A stretch of DNA of 8,692 nt, from NCBI GenBank assembly GCA_030671985.1, contig DAOVHI010000057.1, forward strand, positions 1 through 8,692, given 5' to 3'. How positions within the stretch are numbered: position 1 is the first letter of the stretch; the number at the start of each line of letters is the position of its first letter. This document shows positions 83 to 8,692 of the stretch, piece after piece. Origin of the DNA: JAHJDO01 sp030671985 [NCBI: bacterium]. GTDB lineage: Bacteria; JAHJDO01. The notes beneath the pieces were generated by a model, which was not told the DNA's origin, did no database searches, and was given only the letters and a program-made list of their open reading frames with translations. The position numbers and the translations under genes were made by a program.

Positions 83-1459
83 ATGTGTGGAATATTTGGT
101 ATTTACGGACATAAAGACGCTGCGAGACTTACTTATCTGGGTCTTTATGCGCTTCAGCATCGCGGAGAAGAAAGCGCGGGGATTGTTGCGTATAACGGGA
201 AGAAAATTAGTAGTTATAAAGGCATGGGACTTGTAGGCGATGTATTTGAAGAAAGGAATATAAAGACATTAAAAGGACATTTAGCTATTGGACACAACCG
301 CTACTCAACAACAGGTTTAAGCGCCGCAAAAAACATCCAGCCTTTTTTAACCAGTTTTAAAAGAGCTCCTCTTGCTGTTGCTCATAATGGAAATTTTACC
401 AATACCGCTAAGCTGCACGAACAGCTTGAAAAAGATGGGTCCATATTTCAAACTACTATGGATTCTGAGATATTAGTACATCTTTTAGCAAAATCCAAAC
501 AAAGCGATTATAAAAAGGCGGTTGTGCAGACACTTAGTAAAATAAAGGGTTCTTATTCATTAATTTTGATGATGGGTGATGTTTTAATTGGCGCAAGAGA
601 CCCTTTTGGATTCAAACCGTTATGTTTGGGGAAACTTAATGGCGCTTATGTTTTAGCAAGCGAGACATGCGCTCTGGATTTAATTCAGGCAGAATATATT
701 AGAGACATTGAACCGGGAGAGATTGTATTTATTGACAAACATGGCCTAGAATCAATAAAACCATTTCCTGAGACTAAACGCTCTCTATGTATTTTTGAGT
801 ATATCTATTTTGCAAGACCGGATAGTAATATATTTACTAAAAATGTATATCTAACACGCAAACAACTGGGCAGACAACTTGCTCAGGAACATCCTGTAGA
901 GTGTGATTTGGTTATGCCTATTCCTGACTCAGGAAATTATGCTGCAGTGGGATTTGCGGAAGAATCCAAGATTCCTCATGAAATAGGTATGATAAGAAAT
1001 CATTATATTGGAAGAACCTTTATTCAGCCTTCACAGTTTATTAGAGATTTTAAAGTAAAAATAAAACTTAATCCTATAAGGGATGTTATTAATGGCAAGC
1101 GTATAGTTGTTATAGAGGATTCTATTGTCAGAGGCACGACCAGTAAAATCAGGGTAAAGACGTTGAGAGAAGCGGGAGCTAAAGAAGTTCATATGCGAGT
1201 CAGCTGTCCTCCGATAAGATTTCCCTGTTTTTATGGAATTGACTTTCCAACCAAAAGAGAATTGATTGCCTCAAGCCGCAGTGTTGAGCGGACAAGAGAT
1301 TTTCTTGGATTAGACAGTCTAAGATATTTAAGCCTTGAAGGAATGCTTAAGTCAATGTTATTACCTAAAGGAGAATTCTGCACAGCCTGTTTTAACGGAA
1401 CATACCCTATTAAACCTGCAAAAAAATTATCTAAAAGCATATTAGAGGAGAGAAGCTAG
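83..1459 (+). CDS. purF: Amidophosphoribosyltransferase (glutamine PRPP amidotransferase)
   Basis: This 458-residue protein catalyses the first committed step of purine synthesis, turning PRPP and glutamine into phosphoribosylamine in the cytoplasm. Residues 1 to about 230 are a class II glutaminase domain. Cys2 would be exposed by Met removal, so no propeptide is present. Arg73 lies in HNRYSTTG, Asn102-Gly103 in HNGN and Asp127 in MDSE, all at the expected spacing. The rest is a phosphoribosyltransferase domain with PDSG near residue 283 and the PRPP loop VVIEDSIVRGTT at about 342-353. Cys236, Cys382, Cys433 and Cys436 match the four [4Fe-4S] ligands of the Bacillus-type enzyme. The start is fixed by the need for Cys at position 2 and by a Shine-Dalgarno at about 71-77. 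The stop codon directly abuts the pyrG ATG. Every diagnostic residue is intact, so this should be the working PurF. Confidence 0.97.
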   Translation: MCGIFGIYGHKDAARLTYLGLYALQHRGEESAGIVAYNGKKISSYKGMGLVGDVFEERNIKTLKGHLAIGHNRYSTTGLSAAKNIQPFLTSFKRAPLAVAHNGNFTNTAKLHEQLEKDGSIFQTTMDSEILVHLLAKSKQSDYKKAVVQTLSKIKGSYSLILMMGDVLIGARDPFGFKPLCLGKLNGAYVLASETCALDLIQAEYIRDIEPGEIVFIDKHGLESIKPFPETKRSLCIFEYIYFARPDSNIFTKNVYLTRKQLGRQLAQEHPVECDLVMPIPDSGNYAAVGFAEESKIPHEIGMIRNHYIGRTFIQPSQFIRDFKVKIKLNPIRDVINGKRIVVIEDSIVRGTTSKIRVKTLREAGAKEVHMRVSCPPIRFPCFYGIDFPTKRELIASSRSVERTRDFLGLDSLRYLSLEGMLKSMLLPKGEFCTACFNGTYPIKPAKKLSKSILEERS

Positions 1460-3085
1460 ATGACTAAATATATTTTCGTAACAGGCGGCGTCATATCAAG
1501 TCTTGGAAAAGGAATCGCAGCTGCCGCAATAGGGAAACTTCTTGAATCAAGAGGATTAACTATCTCCATGATAAAATGCGATCCATACATAAACGTAGAT
1601 CCAGGCACAATGAATCCATTTCAGCACGGCGAAGTCTATGTCACAGAAGACGGCGCGGAAACTGATCTGGACCTAGGGCACTATGAAAGATTTACCCATG
1701 CCGTAATGAGCGCAGAAAATAACATTACAACAGGGAAAATATACTACTCTGTTATTTCCAAGGAAAGAAAGGGCTCTTACCTTGGAAAAACCATTCAGGT
1801 TATCCCTCACATTACAGACGAGATAAAAAACTGTATTAAAAAAGCAGCTAAAGATAAAAAGCTTGACGTTGTGATAGTTGAAATAGGAGGAACTGTCGGT
1901 GATATTGAAAGCCTTCCTTTTCTTGAAGCAATAAGACAATTTATCTTTGAGAAAGGTCGTAACAACGCAATCAATATTCATGTAACATTAGTTCCGTATA
2001 TAAAAAGCGCCGATGAAATTAAAACAAAACCTACGCAACATAGTGTAGGAAAGCTGAGAGAAATTGGTATTATTCCTGACATTCTACTATGCAGGTCAGA
2101 GTTTCCTCTCTCAAGGGATATAAAGGCTAAGATTGCTCTTTTCTGCAATGTGGAAGAAAAGGCAGTTATTCAGGCATTAGATGTTCAAAGCATATACGAA
2201 GTTCCAATAGTTTTTAAACATGAGAATCTGGATAAGCTTATTATTGACAAACTTAAGTTAAAATGCGCTAAGGGAGACTTAAAGAATTGGAAAAAACAGG
2301 TCGTAGATAAGATAACAAACCCTAAAAGGACTGTTAAAATCGCTGTTGTGGGAAAATATATAGAACTGCAGGATGCCTATAAATCAATATACGAAGCATT
2401 GGCTCATGGAGGAATTGCTAATAATGTTCAACTGAATATAAAAAAAGTAGATTCAGAATGCATTTCTAAACACTGCGCAGAAAAATATTTAAAAGGAGTA
2501 TACGGAGTGCTTGTGCCTGGAGGATTCGGCAGCAGAGGGATTGAAGGTAAAATTCAGGCAGTTCAATATGCGAGAGAGAATAAAATCCCCTTCTTGGGCA
2601 TATGTCTTGGAATGCAGATAGCAGTAATTGAATTTGCCAGAAATGTTTGCGGCTTAAAAAGGGCAGATTCTACAGAATTCAATAAAAATACACCTCATCC
2701 TGTAATCTGCCTTTTAGATGAACAAAAGAAAATAAAGATTAAAGGCGGAACAATGCGTTTGGGCAAATATTTATGTAGGCTAAAAAAAGGAACAAAAAGT
2801 ATCAAAGCCTATAAAAAAGAAGAAATTTCTGAACGACACAGGCACAGATATGAATTTAACAATAAGTACATTGGAACGATGGAGAAAAATGGTCTTGTAA
2901 TTGCGGGAGTTCATCCGGAAGGCAATCTTGTAGAACTGGTTGAGATAACTGACCATCCATGGTTTGTAGGATGTCAATTTCATCCGGAATTTAAATCAAA
3001 ACCTGATAAAACTCATCCGCTTTTTAGAGAGTTTGTAAAATTATGCAGTCAAAATATTAACAAAAGCAAAAAACAAAAGGAGTAA
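1460..3085 (+). CDS. pyrG: CTP synthase
   Basis: This 541-residue enzyme converts UTP to CTP using ATP and glutamine, the last step of de novo pyrimidine nucleotide synthesis. The length is normal for the family. The N-terminal synthetase domain (about 1-270) has the P-loop-like [11 protein letters not shown] at residues 9-19, the Mg-binding [10 protein letters not shown] segment at 69-78 and [11 protein letters not shown] at about 141-151. A linker is followed by a class I glutaminase domain from about 290. There PGGFG (353-357) forms the oxyanion region, Cys382 in GICLGMQ is the nucleophile, and His508 and Glu510 in FHPEF complete the triad. The ATG follows the purF stop with no spacer, and its Shine-Dalgarno (GAGGAGAG, about 1445-1452) lies inside purF, which implies coupling. 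The tail is lysine-rich. Unlike the last gene in the window, its glutaminase site is fully conserved. Confidence 0.97.
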
Positions 3086-3089
3086 AGAA

Positions 3090-4340
3090 ATGAGTGAAAC
3101 AAATTTGTTTAAGATCACACAGAACCAATTAGATGAAGCTGTTGAGAAGTTAGGGCTCAATAAGGCTGCTCATGAACTTCTTCGGTGGCCTCAACGTGAA
3201 TTCACTTTCACTCTTCCGGTAAAGATGGATGATGGGACCACCAAGATTTTTCATGGATTCAGAATTCAATATAACTCGGCTCTTGGTCCGACAAAGGGAG
3301 GAGTGCGCTGGCATCCTGAAGAAACCATAGATACCGTACGCGCTCTGGCTGCGTGGATGACGTGGAAATGCGCTCTTGTAAACATCCCTCTCGGAGGTGG
3401 TAAAGGTGGCATAATTTGCAATCCTAAGACAATGTCTGAAAGGGAAAAGGAATACCTTGCGAGGGCTTATATCAGAGCTATTGCCTCTCATATTGGTGTT
3501 CACAAGGATGTACCTGCTCCTGATGTCTACACAACGCCGCAGATTATGGCATGGATGATGGATGAGTATGAGGCTATAGTGGGCGAATCTCATCCGGGAA
3601 TGATCACCGGTAAGCCTCTGTCGTTGGGAGGCAGTGAAGGACGTGGAGATGCAACAGCTCGCGGAGGAGTCTTTACCGTAAGAGAGGCGTGTAAAACTCT
3701 TGGTATTAGCTCTAAAGGTACCTTTGCAATTCAGGGCTTTGGAAACGCCGGACAATTCGCAGCGCTGCTGCATTCTGAAATATTAGAAGGGGGAAAACTT
3801 GTTGCAGTATCTGACTCAAAAGGGGGAGTGTATAATGAATCAGGTATTAATCCAGGAGATATGGTGGAGCATAAACTAAAAACAGGAAGTGTCGCCGGCT
3901 TTCCCGGAACAAGTCCCATCAGCAATAAGGAGATTATTGAGCTTGATGTAGATGTTTTCTATCCCTCTGCTCTGGAGAATGTCATTACTGAGAAAAACGC
4001 GCAGAATGTCAAAGCCAGAATAATCTGCGAGCTTGCAAACGGACCTACAACTCCTGAAGCAGACGCAATACTTTATGCAAAGGGCGTTCACATTATACCT
4101 GACTTTCTTGCCAATGCCGGAGGGGTAACTGTCAGCTATTTTGAACAGGTTCAGAATACATATAACTATTATTGGTCACTGGATGATGTGCATAGACAGT
4201 TGGACGCCAAAATGACCACTGCTTATAACTCGGTATATAGAATGCACAAGGAAAAGAATGTTCACATGCGTTTAGCTGCGTATATGATTGCAGTCTCCCG
4301 CGTTGCCGAAGCCGTAAAACTCAGAGGGTGGATATCATAA
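3090..4340 (+). CDS. gdhA: Glutamate dehydrogenase (Glu/Leu/Phe/Val dehydrogenase family)
   Basis: This 416-residue protein matches the short hexameric class that interconverts glutamate with 2-oxoglutarate and ammonia. The key residues Lys69 (GPTKGG), Lys93 (WKCA), Lys105 (GGGKGG) and Asp145 (APDVYT) keep exactly the spacing of the clostridial enzyme residues 89, 113, 125 and 165. The nucleotide-binding domain has GFGNAG at 216-221, and Asp242 ends the second strand, which favours NAD over NADP (inference; cofactor choice is hard to read from sequence). The substrate is most likely glutamate, but leucine or other amino acid dehydrogenases share the fold. The Shine-Dalgarno AAAAGGAG runs up to the pyrG stop, and the start lies four bases after it, so the gene belongs to the same operon. 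In three sampled lines its GC was about 45-50%, against 30-40% in two lines of pyrG. It supplies or consumes the ammonia and glutamate used by its neighbours. Confidence 0.93.
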
Positions 4341-4526: not shown

Positions 4527-7500
4527 ATGCCAAAAAGGACTGATATTCATAAGATTTTAATTATAGGTTCCGGTCCTATAATCATAGGGCAGGCATGTGA
4601 GTTTGATTATTCAGGCACTCAGGCATGTAGAGCGCTTAAAGAAGAAGGGTATGAAGTAGTGCTTGTGAACTCTAATCCTGCTACTATCATGACAGACCCT
4701 GACACAGCTGACAAAACATATATAGAGCCGCTCACCGTAGAAAGCATTGGGGAAATTATCAGGAAAGAAAAGCCTGATGCGCTTCTTCCTAATCTTGGAG
4801 GACAGACGGGACTTAATCTTGCATCAAGTCTTCACAGCTCAGGAGTATTAAAAAAATACGGAGTTGAGGTCATCGGCGTTAAAGCAGACGCTATCAAGCG
4901 CGGAGAAGACAGGATTGCATTTAAGGAAACAATGAATAAATTGGGTATATCTCTTCCTAAATCCGAACCATGTTATTCTGTGGAGGAAGCAGAGAAGATA
5001 GCGGAAAAACTTGGATATCCTGTTGTGTTGCGGCCTGCTTATACATTGGGCGGAACAGGAGGGGGAATTGCTTACAACGTAGAAGAGCTAAAAACTATTG
5101 TCGTCAGAGGTCTTGCAGCAAGTCTTGTACATCAGGTTCTGGTTGAAGAATCTGTTTTGGGATGGGAGGAATTAGAGCTTGAGGTAGTAAGAGATCAGAA
5201 AAACCAGAAGATCACAGTCTGTTTTATTGAAAATATTGATGCTATGGGCGTGCATACAGGAGACAGCTTCTGCTCTGCTCCTATGCTCACAGTTCCAAAA
5301 GCACTGCAGAAACGAATGCAGAATATTTCTTATAAAATTGTTGAGGCTATTGGTGTTATAGGCGGCACAAATGTTCAGCTTGCGCATAATCTTGAGGACG
5401 ATAGATTGGTAGTGATTGAGATCAATCCCAGAACATCGCGCTCATCAGCTCTTGCCTCCAAAGCGACCGGATTTCCAATAGCCCGTATCTCCACAAAGCT
5501 TGCCGTTGGCATTACACTGGATGAAATTCCGTACTGGAAGAAAGGAACTCTTGAGAAATATGAACCAAGCGGAGAGTATATAGTAATTAAATTCGCGCGT
5601 TGGGCTTTTGAAAAGTTTCCGGGAGCAAAGGATATACTTGGAACACAAATGAAGGCTGTAGGCGAAGTAATGAGCATAGGAAAAACATATAAGGAATCCT
5701 TTCAAAAAGCCATCCGTTCTCTTGAGATAAACAGATGCGGTCTTGGCGGAGCTAAGAACTTTAAAACGCTTTCCCTTGAAAGACTGAAAGAGAAATTAGC
5801 AAATCCTTCCAGTGAACGTATTTTTCTGATGTATGAAGCGCTGCGCAAGGGTATGAGCGTAGAAGAACTCTACAGGATGACATACATCGGACGCTGGTTT
5901 ATTAAAGAGATGAAGGAACTTGTAGAATTTGAGGAAGAATTAATTAAAAATAAATGGAAAACTCTTTCTGATGGGAAATTAGTTAAAGCAAAAGAGTGGG
6001 GTTTTTCAGATAAATATCTGGCAGGACTTTTTGAAGTAAAAGAAAAAGAGATCAGACAAAAGAGGATCGCTATAGGCAAAAGCGGATGTTTTGAGGCTGT
6101 GCCTGTGAGCGGAGTAAAGAATGCCGCTTATTACTATTCCACTTACAACGGGAAAGATTCGGTTCCTGTATCATCAAAGAAGAAGATAATGATATTAGGC
6201 GGCGGACCTAATAGAATCGGGCAGGGTATTGAATTTGATTATACGTGTGTACACGCAGCTTTTGCCTTGCGGGATGAAGGATATGAGTCAATTATGGTTA
6301 ACTGCAATCCTGAAACCGTATCCACTGATTATGACACTTCAAACAAGCTTTATTTTGAACCTTTAACAGTTGAAGATGTGCTCACAATTTACAAAAAAGA
6401 GAAACCCGAAGGTGTTATTGTTCAGTTTGGCGGACAAACCCCTCTGAATATTGCTCAGGAATTAAAGAATAATGGGGTGAAAATTCTTGGAACAACTCCC
6501 GAAAGCATACATCTTGCAGAAGATAGAGAGCGTTTCAGAGACAAAATGATCGCTCTTAATATTCCACAGCCGGAAAGCGGTATAGCGCGTTCATTAGACG
6601 AAGCTCTTATAACCGCCAAGAAGATAGGATATCCTCTCATGGTGCGCCCGTCTTATGTGCTGGGAGGACGCGGGATGCAAATTATTTACGATGAGGCTAT
6701 GCTGAGAGATTATGCTATTGAAGCTATTCAGGTCAGTCCTGAGCATCCAATGCTTATTGATAGATTTCTTGAGCAGGCTGTAGAGGCGGAAGTTGATGCT
6801 GTTTCCGATGGAGAAAATACGTTTGTAGCAGCCGTTATGGAACATACGGAATTAGCAGGTGTTCATTCAGGAGATTCTGCGTGCGCTATTCCGTCAAGAA
6901 CTATTAAAAAAGAACACTTAAATACTATAAGAAAATACACATCGGCAATTGCAAAGGAATTGAATGTAGTAGGTTTAATGAATATTCAATATGCAATATG
7001 CGATAATGAAGTTTATATAATCGAGGCTAACCCAAGAGCTTCACGTACGGTTCCAATAGTCTCTAAGGTAACGGGTGTTCCCATAGCCCATATAGCAACT
7101 CAAATAATGCTGGGTAAGAAGATCGGAGATTTTCCTGAACTAAAAACTCATAAGCTTCCTTATGTAGCCGTTAAAGAAGCGGTTTTTCCGTTTAACATGT
7201 TTCCGGAAGTAGATCCTTTACTTGGTCCGGAAATGAGAGCTACGGGAGAAGTTATGGGAATCGGCGATACATTCGGACTTGCTTTTTATAAGGCAGCGGA
7301 AGCAGCCGGTTCAAAGCTTCCTCTTAAGGGGAATGTGCTTTTGACGATAGCCGATAAAGACAAACCTTTTTTGATTCCCATTGCTCAGAGGATCAAGAAA
7401 CTTGGTTTCAGTATTTATGCTACAAAAGGCACGGCTGGATTTCTAAAAAAGAATGGCATAGAGAATACAGAAATAAAAAAATTACATGAAGGAAGACCAA

Positions 7501-7745
7501 ATATAACCGATGCAGTTAAAAACAAAGAGATTAATCTTATTATCAATACTCCGGTTGGACGCAGCGGGAAACATGATGACAGTTACATCCGTATAACCGC
7601 AATACAGCATAAGATTCCCTATATTACTTCTATAACAGCTGCGGAAGCCAGTGTCGAAGGGATTGAATCTGTATCCAAAACTAAAAGTTCACCAAAATCC
7701 ATTCAGGATTATCTCAAGGAACTTGTTAGGGTTGGGGAACAATAA
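4527..7745 (+). CDS. carB: Carbamoyl-phosphate synthase large subunit, full length (second carB)
   Basis: At 1072 residues this is a normal-length CarB, which forms carbamoyl phosphate from bicarbonate, two ATP and ammonia. The first ATP-grasp half (1 to about 400) carries GQACEFDYSGTQA, Arg169 before LGGTGGG (174-180) and metal ligands Glu298 and Asn300 in EINPR. A linking domain follows. The second synthetase half starts near 552 with ILGGGPNRIGQGIEFDY and has Arg707 before LGGRG and Glu833 and Asn835 in EANPR. The MGS-like allosteric domain runs from about 935 to the end. Thr966 and Thr969 (ATKGT) and HEGRPN match positions that bind nucleotide effectors in the E. coli enzyme. All catalytic elements look intact. 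No carA is in the window, so its glutaminase partner is unknown. It is clearly distinct from the first carB, whose tail matches it at only 14 of 25 residues. It has its own promoter and is followed 21 bases later by a PurF paralogue. Confidence 0.96.
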   Translation: MPKRTDIHKILIIGSGPIIIGQACEFDYSGTQACRALKEEGYEVVLVNSNPATIMTDPDTADKTYIEPLTVESIGEIIRKEKPDALLPNLGGQTGLNLASSLHSSGVLKKYGVEVIGVKADAIKRGEDRIAFKETMNKLGISLPKSEPCYSVEEAEKIAEKLGYPVVLRPAYTLGGTGGGIAYNVEELKTIVVRGLAASLVHQVLVEESVLGWEELELEVVRDQKNQKITVCFIENIDAMGVHTGDSFCSAPMLTVPKALQKRMQNISYKIVEAIGVIGGTNVQLAHNLEDDRLVVIEINPRTSRSSALASKATGFPIARISTKLAVGITLDEIPYWKKGTLEKYEPSGEYIVIKFARWAFEKFPGAKDILGTQMKAVGEVMSIGKTYKESFQKAIRSLEINRCGLGGAKNFKTLSLERLKEKLANPSSERIFLMYEALRKGMSVEELYRMTYIGRWFIKEMKELVEFEEELIKNKWKTLSDGKLVKAKEWGFSDKYLAGLFEVKEKEIRQKRIAIGKSGCFEAVPVSGVKNAAYYYSTYNGKDSVPVSSKKKIMILGGGPNRIGQGIEFDYTCVHAAFALRDEGYESIMVNCNPETVSTDYDTSNKLYFEPLTVEDVLTIYKKEKPEGVIVQFGGQTPLNIAQELKNNGVKILGTTPESIHLAEDRERFRDKMIALNIPQPESGIARSLDEALITAKKIGYPLMVRPSYVLGGRGMQIIYDEAMLRDYAIEAIQVSPEHPMLIDRFLEQAVEAEVDAVSDGENTFVAAVMEHTELAGVHSGDSACAIPSRTIKKEHLNTIRKYTSAIAKELNVVGLMNIQYAICDNEVYIIEANPRASRTVPIVSKVTGVPIAHIATQIMLGKKIGDFPELKTHKLPYVAVKEAVFPFNMFPEVDPLLGPEMRATGEVMGIGDTFGLAFYKAAEAAGSKLPLKGNVLLTIADKDKPFLIPIAQRIKKLGFSIYATKGTAGFLKKNGIENTEIKKLHEGRPNITDAVKNKEINLIINTPVGRSGKHDDSYIRITAIQHKIPYITSITAAEASVEGIESVSKTKSSPKSIQDYLKELVRVGEQ

Positions 7746-7752
7746 TAAATAA

Positions 7753-7758
7753 AAGGAG
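7753..7758 (+). promoter_or_regulatory. Ribosome binding site fixing the start of the PurF paralogue
   Basis: AAGGAG lies eight bases before the ATG at 7767. An in-frame TAG at 7761-7763 rules out any start further upstream. The Asp at position 2 is therefore a real feature of the protein and not an artefact of a misplaced start. Confidence 0.85.
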
Positions 7759-7766
7759 CATAGAAA

Positions 7767-8692
7767 ATGGACGGGATATTCGGAGTTGTCCTAAAAAAGG
7801 ATTGTCAGGAGGTTTTGTTTTATGGAACGGATTATCATTCTCATCTGGGGACGGAATATGGAGGGCTGGCAGTATTAGGGAAAAAATTATCCAGAAAGAT
7901 TCACACAATCAGCGGAGGACAGTTTAAAAGCAGGTTCTATGAAGATTATAAGAAGATGAAAGGGAAATCAGGTATTGGGGTGATATCCACAAGAGAGGAA
8001 CAGCCCATATATCTAAATTCAAAATTCGGGCACTTGTGTATTGTCAGCAACGGTTTAATTGCCAATTCGGACGGGTTGACCAAGGATTTGCACGGGAAGG
8101 GAATCTCATTTAGTGAAACCGCTAAAAAAGGAGTAAACAGTACAGAACTGGTTGCGAAATTAATAAATCAGGGTAATAGTTTAGTGCATGGAATAGAAAA
8201 TTATTTTAAAAAGATTAAGGGCTCCTGCTCTATACTAATTCTGCATAAGAACGGTATTTATATCGCCAGAGATAAATTAGGATATTCTCCCCTAATTATA
8301 GGTAAATCAGATGAAGGCTGGGCAGTAACTACAGAAACTTCCGCTTTTTTTAACTTAGGATTTAGCATAGAAAGATACGTCAAACCTGGAGAGATACTGC
8401 TTTTAAATCACACGGGGTTTAAAGTTCTTAAAGAAGGAGAATTGCGTCAAAAGACAGATACGTTTTTATGGATATACACTGGTTTCCCTGCATCGAATTA
8501 TGAGGGTATAAATACAGAAGAAGTAAGAGAGCGCTGTGGGAAATTTTTGGCAAAGAGAGACGACGTTGAAGCGGATTTAGCAGCAGGAGTTCCGGACTCG
8601 GGAACTACACATGCTATTGGTTATTCCATTGAATCAAGGATCCCTTTTAGACGTCCTCTGGTTAAATATAATCCGGGTTACGGCAGGAGTTA
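7767..8692 (+). CDS. PurF-family paralogue with inactivated glutaminase site (3' end outside window)
   Basis: The first 308 codons are visible, with no stop. The layout follows amidophosphoribosyltransferase: MDGIFGV at the start, SNG (residues 94-96), STEL, KGSCSILIL, IARDKLGYSPL, a PGE turn, and VPDSG with AIGY in the phosphoribosyltransferase part. The glutaminase machinery is lost. The nucleophile Cys2 is Asp, the HNRYST segment is reduced to IGVIST without its Arg, and the Asp of MDSE is Ser. Asn95-Gly96 of the oxyanion hole survive. The first iron-sulfur Cys (236 in the intact PurF) is Asp231. From memory, a family with GTDYHSHLG and ASNYEG-like segments occurs in clostridia and Bacteroidetes under the name amidophosphoribosyltransferase, often with Gly instead of Cys at position 2; its role is unknown to me. 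The PRPP loop lies beyond the window, so transferase activity cannot be judged. It probably shares the carB transcript. Confidence 0.92.
   Translation, partial: MDGIFGVVLKKDCQEVLFYGTDYHSHLGTEYGGLAVLGKKLSRKIHTISGGQFKSRFYEDYKKMKGKSGIGVISTREEQPIYLNSKFGHLCIVSNGLIANSDGLTKDLHGKGISFSETAKKGVNSTELVAKLINQGNSLVHGIENYFKKIKGSCSILILHKNGIYIARDKLGYSPLIIGKSDEGWAVTTETSAFFNLGFSIERYVKPGEILLLNHTGFKVLKEGELRQKTDTFLWIYTGFPASNYEGINTEEVRERCGKFLAKRDDVEADLAAGVPDSGTTHAIGYSIESRIPFRRPLVKYNPGYGRS

What the first reader, a model, noticed from the sequence alone, without database searches (positions are those of the whole stretch)
7767..8692. PurF paralogue with a dismantled glutaminase active site (Cys2 to Asp, Arg and Asp lost)
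The protein starts MDGIFGV where active class II amidotransferases start MCGIFG. The start is certain because an in-frame stop lies just upstream. The substrate-binding Arg of HNRYST and the Asp of MDSE are also missing, while Asn-Gly and PDSG remain. Conservation of the fold with loss of chemistry suggests an ammonia-dependent transferase, a glutamine or PRPP sensor, or a regulatory partner of PurF or CarB. The genome already has an intact purF at 83-1459, so a separate role is likely. Similar sequences seem to exist in other phyla (recollection), but I know of no assigned function.
Basis: partly seen in the sequence, partly recalled or inferred. Interest (0 to 1): 0.68.

Follow-up and report, generated by a model that had tools for sequence, protein, structure and literature searches.

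The report
Glutamine-blind PurF, probably ammonia-fed
The gene belongs to an old bacterial family related to the first enzyme of purine synthesis that has lost its glutamine-cutting site but kept its sugar-phosphate site; because some bacteria have later purine genes and no other candidate for that step was found in them, it probably starts purine synthesis from free ammonia.

Summary
The ORF at 7767 starts MDGIFG with an in-frame stop two codons upstream and lacks the glutaminase Cys, Arg and Asp. The contig ends inside it; the rest lies on another contig.

It is a family: 44 of 44 aligned relatives, from at least five phylum-level groups, lack the Cys, both glutamine-site Arg residues and the Asp, yet keep the PRPP loop (DS[I/L]VRGT, then Q for T). 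They form one clade with graded intermediates. dN/dS is 0.03-0.07, so this is not decay.

'A separate role because purF is present' is weakened: 4 of 4 congeneric genomes (two at least 95% complete) have no other match to the purF model except a GlmS-like one, and one carries purD, purN, purL, purM, purE and guaA. Five ruminant-gut Bacteroidales look alike, with purD and purC.

Best explanation: an ammonia-dependent PRPP aminotransferase making phosphoribosylamine. Against: most carriers also have a PurF, and one carrier showed none of the purine genes sought. Archaeal PurF' is a published precedent with the same untested proposal. No biochemistry.

The parts
7767..8692 (+). X: Cys-less PurF-like protein, first 308 of 463 residues (length from congeneric copies); gene cut by the contig end, rest on contig C151 of the same genome (L109)
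7754..7758 (+). AGGAG, likely ribosome binding site; in-frame TAG at 7761-7763 fixes the start
   Evidence: reading as RBS is inference
7770..7772 (+). codon 2, GAC (Asp) where PurF has the catalytic Cys
7827..7853 (+). TDYHSHLGT (aa 21-29): family-specific motif at the place of PurF's LQHRGQ; its Leu replaces PurF Arg26
7977..8006 (+). GVISTREEQP (aa 71-80): site where PurF's GHxRYST...QP loop is shortened, removing Arg73/Tyr74
8049..8054 (+). Asn95-Gly96, kept here; Asn kept in 18 of 44 family rows
8136..8147 (+). NSTE (aa 124-127): PurF Asp127 (xDSE) lost; aligned letter Ser125
8457..8459 (+). Asp231 where PurF and 40 of 44 family rows have a Cys of the presumed Fe-S set
8592..8603 (+). PDSG (aa 276-279), kept in 44 of 44 rows
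83..1459 (+). canonical purF (525 bits vs TIGR01134); no counterpart found in the four congeneric genomes
1460..3085 (+). pyrG, CTP synthase (a glutamine amidotransferase), 830 bits vs TIGR00337
3090..4340 (+). glutamate dehydrogenase (best model NF040817, 601 bits, below its cut-off of 750)
4527..7745 (+). carB, carbamoyl-phosphate synthase large subunit (1389 bits vs TIGR01369), directly upstream of X

Best explanation
X is a PurF-derived PRPP aminotransferase that can no longer use glutamine. Shown: the glutaminase site is removed in the whole X clade, the PRPP-site residues are kept, the gene is under strong purifying selection, and in several lineages X is the only PurF homologue found (GlmS-like matches apart); in two of these lineages purD, whose enzyme consumes phosphoribosylamine, was shown to be present. 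Inferred: X binds PRPP and replaces the pyrophosphate with free ammonia, giving 5-phosphoribosylamine for PurD, as Cys1 mutants of E. coli PurF still do with ammonia. Where a normal PurF coexists, X would be the isozyme for ammonia-rich conditions, much as AsnA stands to AsnB. The rebuilt N-terminal domain (TDYHSHLG, Cys13, His46) then serves something else: closing the old pocket, an ammonia entrance, or a regulatory ligand.
For: Residues, 44 X rows against 38 PurF rows: Cys1, Arg26, the Arg73/Tyr74/Thr76 loop and Asp127 lost 44/44; Asp367, Ser368, Val370, Arg371, Gly372, Thr373, Arg332, Lys349, Tyr258 (E. coli numbering without Met) and PDSG kept 44/44. PurF fold: AlphaFold2 pLDDT 90.1, pTM 0.87; best PDB match B. 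subtilis PurF 1ao0, TM 0.82. dN/dS 0.029-0.068. Only X and a GlmS-like match, or X alone: G001-G004, G486, G616; G075, G076, G328-G330; the long Bacteroidota PurF sought directly and not found in G075 and G076. Users of PRA and later steps: G003 purD (551 bits, over cut-off), purN, purL, purM, purE, guaA in 0.88 of about 2.0 Mb sampled plus L064; purD over cut-off in 5 of 5 of these Bacteroidales, purC three places from X in 5 of 5, PurL-like matches below cut-off in 5 of 5, fragmented in G075. Omnitrophota: X lies in purB-purL-LOG-(purQ)-X-(purF)-purM-purD-purE. Literature: E. coli PurF with its Cys replaced still uses ammonia (PMC3261824, section 6); no PurF-independent route known in Salmonella made enough PRA for purines (PMC3485032, passages).
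Against: No biochemistry. 23 of 32 carriers and 12 of 23 also have a match over the purF cut-off; 4 more have the long PurF and one (G068) a PurF in two pieces. G072 (Clostridia MAG) has X but no purF-type, purD, purM or PurL-like match, and G079 lacks purF and purD; how complete these MAGs are is not known. The flexible loop changed: Tyr329 to Gly/Thr and Thr374 to Gln in 44/44, Ile335 kept in 7 of 44, which could mean a different acceptor. purM was not found in G075 and G328, and is a weak match (88-90 bits, cut-off 236) in the other three. purH, purC, purB and purQ were not seen in the G003 sample. The window genome itself has purF. Such strict conservation of the old glutaminase domain is more than a plain ammonia enzyme needs.
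Confidence: 0.65

Rival explanations
1. Catalytically silent pseudoenzyme: X binds PRPP or nucleotides and regulates PurF (mixed oligomers) or another enzyme such as CarB.
For: Most carriers have a PurF too (23 of 32; 12 of 23 plus 4 with the long PurF). X is directly next to purF in L034 and L040, and next to carB in the window genus, G486 and G528/G391. The N-terminal domain is nearly as constrained as the C-terminal one.
Against: Genomes with X, no PurF found, but purD and other purine genes leave no PurF to regulate and a gap to fill. PRPP-loop residues, Arg332 and Lys349 kept 44/44. CarB is only one of many neighbours.
Confidence: 0.17
2. X transfers phosphoribosyl from PRPP to an acceptor other than ammonia, in another pathway.
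For: Thr374 to Gln and Tyr329 to Gly/Thr in 44/44 and other flexible-loop changes; carriers G072 and G079 without purD; early-branching relatives change PDSG to PFSG or PNSG.
Against: Position inside the purine cluster in Omnitrophota, and the gap at PurF in genomes with purD.
Confidence: 0.13
3. X receives ammonia from a separate glutaminase that docks on its rebuilt N-terminal domain, so it is glutamine-dependent only as a complex. (Overlaps with the best explanation: only the source of ammonia differs.)
For: Neighbours within three places include many glutamine amidotransferase genes: carA/carB, hisH-hisF, a GuaA synthetase-domain gene, nadE, glmS, purQ/purL. Family-specific residues Cys13, Asp22, Tyr23, Ile45 and Phe57 are kept 44/44, His46 43/44.
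Against: No single partner recurs in all lineages, and 26 of 54 loci have no purine, amidotransferase-system or Gdh gene within three places.
Confidence: 0.12
4. Pseudogene, misassembly or sequencing error.
For: The gene is cut by the contig end in this assembly.
Against: Five assemblies of the genus carry Asp2; dN/dS 0.03-0.07; 44 of 44 relatives lack the Cys.
Confidence: 0.01

Closest known systems
PurF, glutamine PRPP amidotransferase (EC 2.4.2.14; TIGR01134; 1ao0/1gph, 1ecf)
   Same: Two-domain fold over the full length (TM 0.82), PRPP loop, PDSG, and in 40 of 44 rows all four cysteines of the Fe-S type enzyme
   Different: No catalytic Cys, no glutamine-site Arg residues, no Asp127, RYST loop deleted, GTQ for GTT. 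The window part scores 124 bits and full-length X 164-216 bits against a cut-off of 350. Separate clade
PurF' of Crenarchaeota (PMC3261824, passages and section 6 read)
   Same: Cys-less PurF paralogue near purF and other purine genes; same proposal of an ammonia-dependent PRPP aminotransferase, untested there too
   Different: There Ala or Val at the Cys site in many members, here Ser, Gly or Asp. There each organism also has a PurF, here some seem not to. Common ancestry could not be tested (no archaeal sequence at hand)
Long PurF of Bacteroidota and a Kiritimatiellales genome (579-650 aa ORFs, xCGxAxxRLLKP)
   Same: PRPP loop; found in four X carriers (G071, G073, G077, G078)
   Different: Keeps the Cys, an RGQ motif and an RYxT-type loop; very distant in the tree
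GlmS and AsnB (other class II amidotransferases)
   Same: N-terminal Ntn domain
   Different: Other acceptor domains; X's C-terminal half is PurF's
Ammonia-using isozymes such as AsnA, NH3-dependent NadE, Gdh (general knowledge)
   Same: Proposed role: the ammonia route beside a glutamine route
   Different: Analogy of role only; no homology with X is claimed

Membership tests
PurF (EC 2.4.2.14) | Score over TIGR01134 cut-off (350 bits) | tested here: not met
   123.8 bits for the window part; full-length X 164-216 bits
PurF (EC 2.4.2.14) | N-terminal catalytic Cys | tested here: not met
   0 of 44 rows
PurF (EC 2.4.2.14) | Glutamine-site Arg26, Arg73 and Asp127 | tested here: not met
   0 of 44 rows at each; role of these residues recalled
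PurF (EC 2.4.2.14) | PRPP loop and PDSG | tested here: met
   44 of 44 for D-S-x-V-R-G-T and PDSG, with Gln for the next Thr in 44 of 44; own copy CEDSIVRGTQ in L109
PurF (EC 2.4.2.14) | Two-domain fold | tested here: met
   predicted structure of the congeneric copy L032
PurF (EC 2.4.2.14) | Four Fe-S cysteines (B. subtilis type) | tested here: inconclusive
   All four in 40 of 44 rows; Asp, Ser, Cys, Val in the 4 rows of the window's genus and in the window's own copy. Not universal in PurF: E. coli has Cys at one of the four aligned positions
PurF (EC 2.4.2.14) | Glutamine-dependent PRA formation | not testable with these tools
   needs enzyme assay
PurF' (Crenarchaeota) | Cys-less PurF paralogue | tested here: met
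   with the definition
PurF' (Crenarchaeota) | Close to purF and other purine genes | tested here: met
   next to purF in L034 and L040, in a purine cluster in other Omnitrophota loci, four genes from purF in the window; not in all lineages
PurF' (Crenarchaeota) | Shared ancestry with archaeal PurF' | not tested
Ammonia-dependent PRPP aminotransferase (works like) | PRA formation from PRPP and NH3 | not testable with these tools
   only genomic gap-filling:

The most novel reading that the evidence does not exclude
Purine synthesis in several bacterial lineages starts without glutamine: a whole clade of PurF enzymes turned its glutaminase domain into a new module (conserved TDYHSHLG, Cys13, His46) that admits, senses or receives ammonia, perhaps from changing partner amidotransferases encoded beside it (CarAB, GuaA, HisHF, NadE, GlmS), and so ties the committed step of purine synthesis to free ammonia.
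Probability: 0.25. Interest if true: 0.8.

Novelty: new variant of a known kind. Interest (0 to 1): 0.62.

Why it matters
The committed step of purine synthesis is taught as glutamine-dependent and is the classic Ntn amidotransferase with an ammonia channel (general knowledge). A widespread clade that dropped glutamine, and in some bacteria is the only candidate found for the step, would make ammonia-fed purine synthesis a natural pathway, explain 'missing purF' in a candidate phylum and in ruminant-gut Bacteroidales, and correct the name that PurF similarity alone would give. Sister lineages that still have the Cys (L153, L155) or have lost it but keep QHR (L152, L154) give a stepwise series for studying how an Ntn domain is dismantled and reused.

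Tried and rejected
Pseudogene or error: rejected (dN/dS, five assemblies). Hidden upstream start with Cys: rejected, in-frame TAG. Missing PurF in Bacteroidales explained by the long Cys-containing PurF: true for G073, G077, G078 (and for Kiritimatiellales G071), not for G075 and G076. G328-G330 were not searched with the long PurF itself; the purF model, which rings with the four known long PurFs at 87-156 bits, found only X and a GlmS-like match there. A solved structure closer than PurF: none. Published function: searches gave one relevant paper, PMC3261824 (passages and section 6 read). PMC12548448 (two passages, found by one search for DUF1846) and PMC3485032 (passages) were read for side questions; all other hits were seen in listings only. 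The held library lacks most subscription journals. 'GlmS-like' is inferred from ORF length (about 600-660 aa) and from the match being confined to the N-terminal part of the model; only two were read and named (L105 by eye; L162 by NCBIfam).

Caveats of counts. Rows left out and of the tree: truncated or split L001 (window), L044, L045, L047, L062; duplicates L032, L033; near copies L049, L056, L059, L132, L136, L140, L142, L144, L146, L149, L150. The 44 X rows are all different, but several are close relatives (four of the window's genus, four of the ruminant Bacteroidales); 38 PurF rows hold 36 different sequences. In one search: 33 of 39 X rows (two duplicates and four partial rows dropped; L047 excluded earlier) and 11 PurF rows that I chose. 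The neighbour test used references partly picked after seeing neighbours, and loci of one lineage are not independent, so its near/far contrast is biased upward; its 54 loci include five of intermediate types. The tree used the quick method (SH-aLRT only). One search found X in 3 of 247 Bacteroidota-draw genomes, one being the centre itself; one search found matches at E <= 1e-90 in 30 of 385 genomes, 25 X proper and 5 intermediate types.

The four confidences add up to more than 1 because the third rival overlaps with the best explanation.

Full report
Observation. The window is one whole contig (G000:C135, 8692 bases) of a 1.25 Mb genome rated 92% complete. The gene X starts at 7767 with ATG GAC, and TAG stands in frame two codons before. 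NCBIfam gives purF (TIGR01134) only 123.8 bits against a cut-off of 350, while the window's purF at 83-1459 gets 525. Pfam sees the GATase_7 domain. The C-terminal part is on contig C151 of the same genome, sharing 18 bases with the window's end, and reads CEDSIVRGTQ in the PRPP loop; a DUF1846 gene follows it.

Family. A protein search of one-per-species genomes gave 31 loci: Omnitrophota, Kiritimatiellales, Bacteroidales including Prevotella, Lachnospiraceae, a Clostridia MAG, and two unclassified 'bacterium' MAGs identical in this protein to genomes of the window's genus. The window's phylum as held contains only its own genus, 5 genomes. A profile (A1) rang at E <= 1e-90 in 30 of 385 genomes drawn around the window's genome: 5 of the window's genus, 20 further X, and 5 intermediate types. 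In a phylum draw around Bacteroidales genome G075 it found X in 3 of 247, G075 included.

Residues. Against E. coli PurF (L178) and 38 other PurF rows, the 44 X rows lack Cys1 (25 Ser, 15 Gly, 4 Asp), Arg26, the Arg73-Tyr74-Thr76 loop and Asp127 in every row; Asn101 survives in 18 of 44. All 44 keep Asp367-Ser368, Val370-Arg371-Gly372-Thr373, Arg332, Lys349, Tyr258 and PDSG; position 366 is Asp or Glu as in PurF; position 369 is Ile in 43, Leu in 1; Thr374 is Gln and Tyr329 is Gly or Thr in all. The roles of these residues in E. coli PurF are recalled from the structural literature. Positions that are fixed in X but not in PurF arose in the old glutaminase domain: Cys13, Asp22, Tyr23, Ile45, Phe57 (44 of 44), Leu27 and His46 (43 of 44). 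The four cysteines that ligate the Fe-S cluster in B. subtilis PurF (identification recalled) are all present in 40 of 44 rows; in the window's genus three of four are lost together (Asp, Ser, Cys, Val).

Selection and fold. Between congeneric copies dN/dS is 0.029-0.068. For aa 1-222 and 223-463 of the four complete copies it is 0.057-0.070 and 0.044-0.049 in five of six pairs (the sixth pair, G002-G003, is nearly identical), so the N-terminal half is almost as constrained as the rest. AlphaFold2 on the congeneric copy L032 gives pLDDT 90.1 and pTM 0.87, the only stretch under 50 being 303-310, in the flexible-loop region. Foldseek's 17 best solved matches are all PurF (1ao0 first: TM 0.82, 31% identity).

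Tree. 90 rows, quick maximum likelihood: X is one side of a single branch (44 rows, support 90), and X plus five intermediate rows are split from PurF by a long branch (1.36 changes per column, support 100). Branching off in order are L153/L155, which still have Cys, QHRGQ and Asp127 but lack the RYST loop; L152/L154, Cys-less but with QHR; L151 (a long branch); then X. The loss looks stepwise and old.

Who else does the job? In the window's genus TIGR01134 at E <= 1e-14 finds X plus a GlmS-like match (G002, G003; 96 and 95% complete) or X alone (G001, G004; 62 and 90%), and a canonical PurF only in G000. G486 and G616 (96, 92%) likewise show X and a GlmS-like match only. Five related ruminant-gut Bacteroidales (G075, G076, G328-G330) likewise; the long Bacteroidota-type PurF was sought directly in G075 and G076 and not found. 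Prevotellaceae G331 and G332 also show only X and a GlmS-like match, but their relatives G073 and G078 have the long PurF, so missing contigs are possible there. Against this, 23 of 32 carriers and 12 of 23 have a match over the cut-off (in G402 one of two such matches is the intermediate protein itself). Of the other 9, G571 has a PurF fragment, G311 a 641-aa match like the long PurF, and G333 only its intermediate protein. Of the other 11, G071, G073, G077, G078 have the long PurF, G068 a PurF in two pieces, and G060, G066, G072, G075, G076, G079 neither; G060 and G066 are small Omnitrophota MAGs.

Is the pathway there? G003: 884 kb in 80 stretches plus the X locus held purD (551 bits, over cut-off), purN, purM, purE, purL and guaA; purH, purC, purB and purQ were not seen in this 44% sample. 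Bacteroidales: purD over cut-off in 5 of 5, purC three places from X in 5 of 5, PurL-like matches below cut-off in 5 of 5, fragmented in G075, weak purM matches in 3 of 5. Contrary cases: G072 has X but no purF-type, purD, purM or PurL-like match; G079 lacks purF and purD but has weak purM and PurL matches. In Salmonella, PurF-independent PRA never sufficed for purines (PMC3485032, passages), so a PurF-less purine maker needs a replacement, and X is the only homologue found.

Neighbours (names by NCBIfam). Omnitrophota: purB, purL, a TIGR00730 protein, purQ, X, purF, purM, purD, purE in this order, with purQ or purF absent from several loci. Window genus: gdh, carB, X, DUF1846, purL, hisF (G002); the window has purF and pyrG in front of gdh. 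G486: carA, carB, X. G528/G391: carA, carB, X, glmS, DUF1846 (carA not on the G391 stretch). L042 and L046: nadE, X. G044: purB, X. L061: X, purH. Intermediate types: a GuaA synthetase-domain gene, then the protein, then carA-carB (G402) or hisH-hisF (G539). Of ORFs within three places of X, 66 of 280 are purine, amidotransferase-system or Gdh genes, against 9 of 205 further off on the same loci and 15 of 806 in the G003 sample; 28 of 54 loci have at least one, 26 none (biased upward, see caveats).

Mechanism. The simplest reading: X binds PRPP in the kept C-terminal site and uses free ammonia. E. coli PurF lacking its Cys has no detectable glutamine activity but can still use ammonia (PMC3261824, citing its reference 22). 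Asp2 would also keep the initiator Met on (general knowledge), so no N-terminal nucleophile remains in the window's genus. That PRPP is bound, that ammonia is the acceptor and that PRA is the product are inferences. Why the N-terminal domain is so conserved is unexplained.

Known or new? PMC3261824 described Cys-less PurF' in Crenarchaeota beside purF and proposed an ammonia-dependent enzyme without test. In my searches I found no paper on the bacterial clade, on X as the only PurF, or on a tested function. I file it as a new variant of a known kind.

Noticed in passing
L109 (after X); L064:4976-6520; L162; L175; L158: A DUF1846 protein gene (PF08903/PF20921, PRK13663, no known function) directly follows X or lies two genes on in three lineages, one an intermediate type. 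A DUF1846 gene of Clostridioides difficile (CDR20291_0828) is listed as essential (PMC12548448, passages). A possible partner in the same pathway.
   Followed up: partly
window 8457-8459 and L109; L003-L006: The window's genus lost three of the four presumed Fe-S cysteines together (Asp, Ser, Cys, Val), while the 40 other X rows keep all four.
   Followed up: yes
L153, L155 (G402, G539); L152, L154 (G345, G333): Intermediate PurF paralogues, in genomes that also have a normal PurF (G345, G402, G539; not G333): one pair keeps the Cys but has PFSG for PDSG and no RYST loop, the other is Cys-less with PNSG and ARGWGRKP where X has ARDxxGxxP.
   Followed up: partly
window 83-3085: purF and pyrG stand in front of gdh in this genome but not in congeneric G002; their G+C (0.375, 0.364) is lower than that of gdh, carB and X (0.452, 0.409, 0.394). 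Gain here or loss elsewhere is open.
   Followed up: partly
L048 (G072): Clostridia MAG of 2.8 Mb with X but no purF-type, purD, purM or PurL-like match: an auxotroph with another use for X, an incomplete MAG, or a binning problem.
   Followed up: partly
L037:5312-5977 and nine more Omnitrophota loci: A TIGR00730 (LOG-like, 'possible lysine decarboxylase') gene lies just before purQ or X in 10 Omnitrophota loci, after purL where the contig reaches that far.
   Followed up: no
L101, L102, L103, L104: Long, Cys-containing PurF (579-650 aa ORFs): in two Prevotella-type genomes it lies between pyrG- and carA-like ORFs (named by eye). It scores 87-156 bits against the purF cut-off of 350, so annotation by that model may miss it.
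   Followed up: partly
L047:5965-7205: One Omnitrophota copy of X is split into two overlapping ORFs, by a frameshift or assembly error.
   Followed up: no
window 3090-4340: Glutamate dehydrogenase whose best NCBIfam model is the archaeal GdhA (601 bits, below its cut-off of 750).
   Followed up: no
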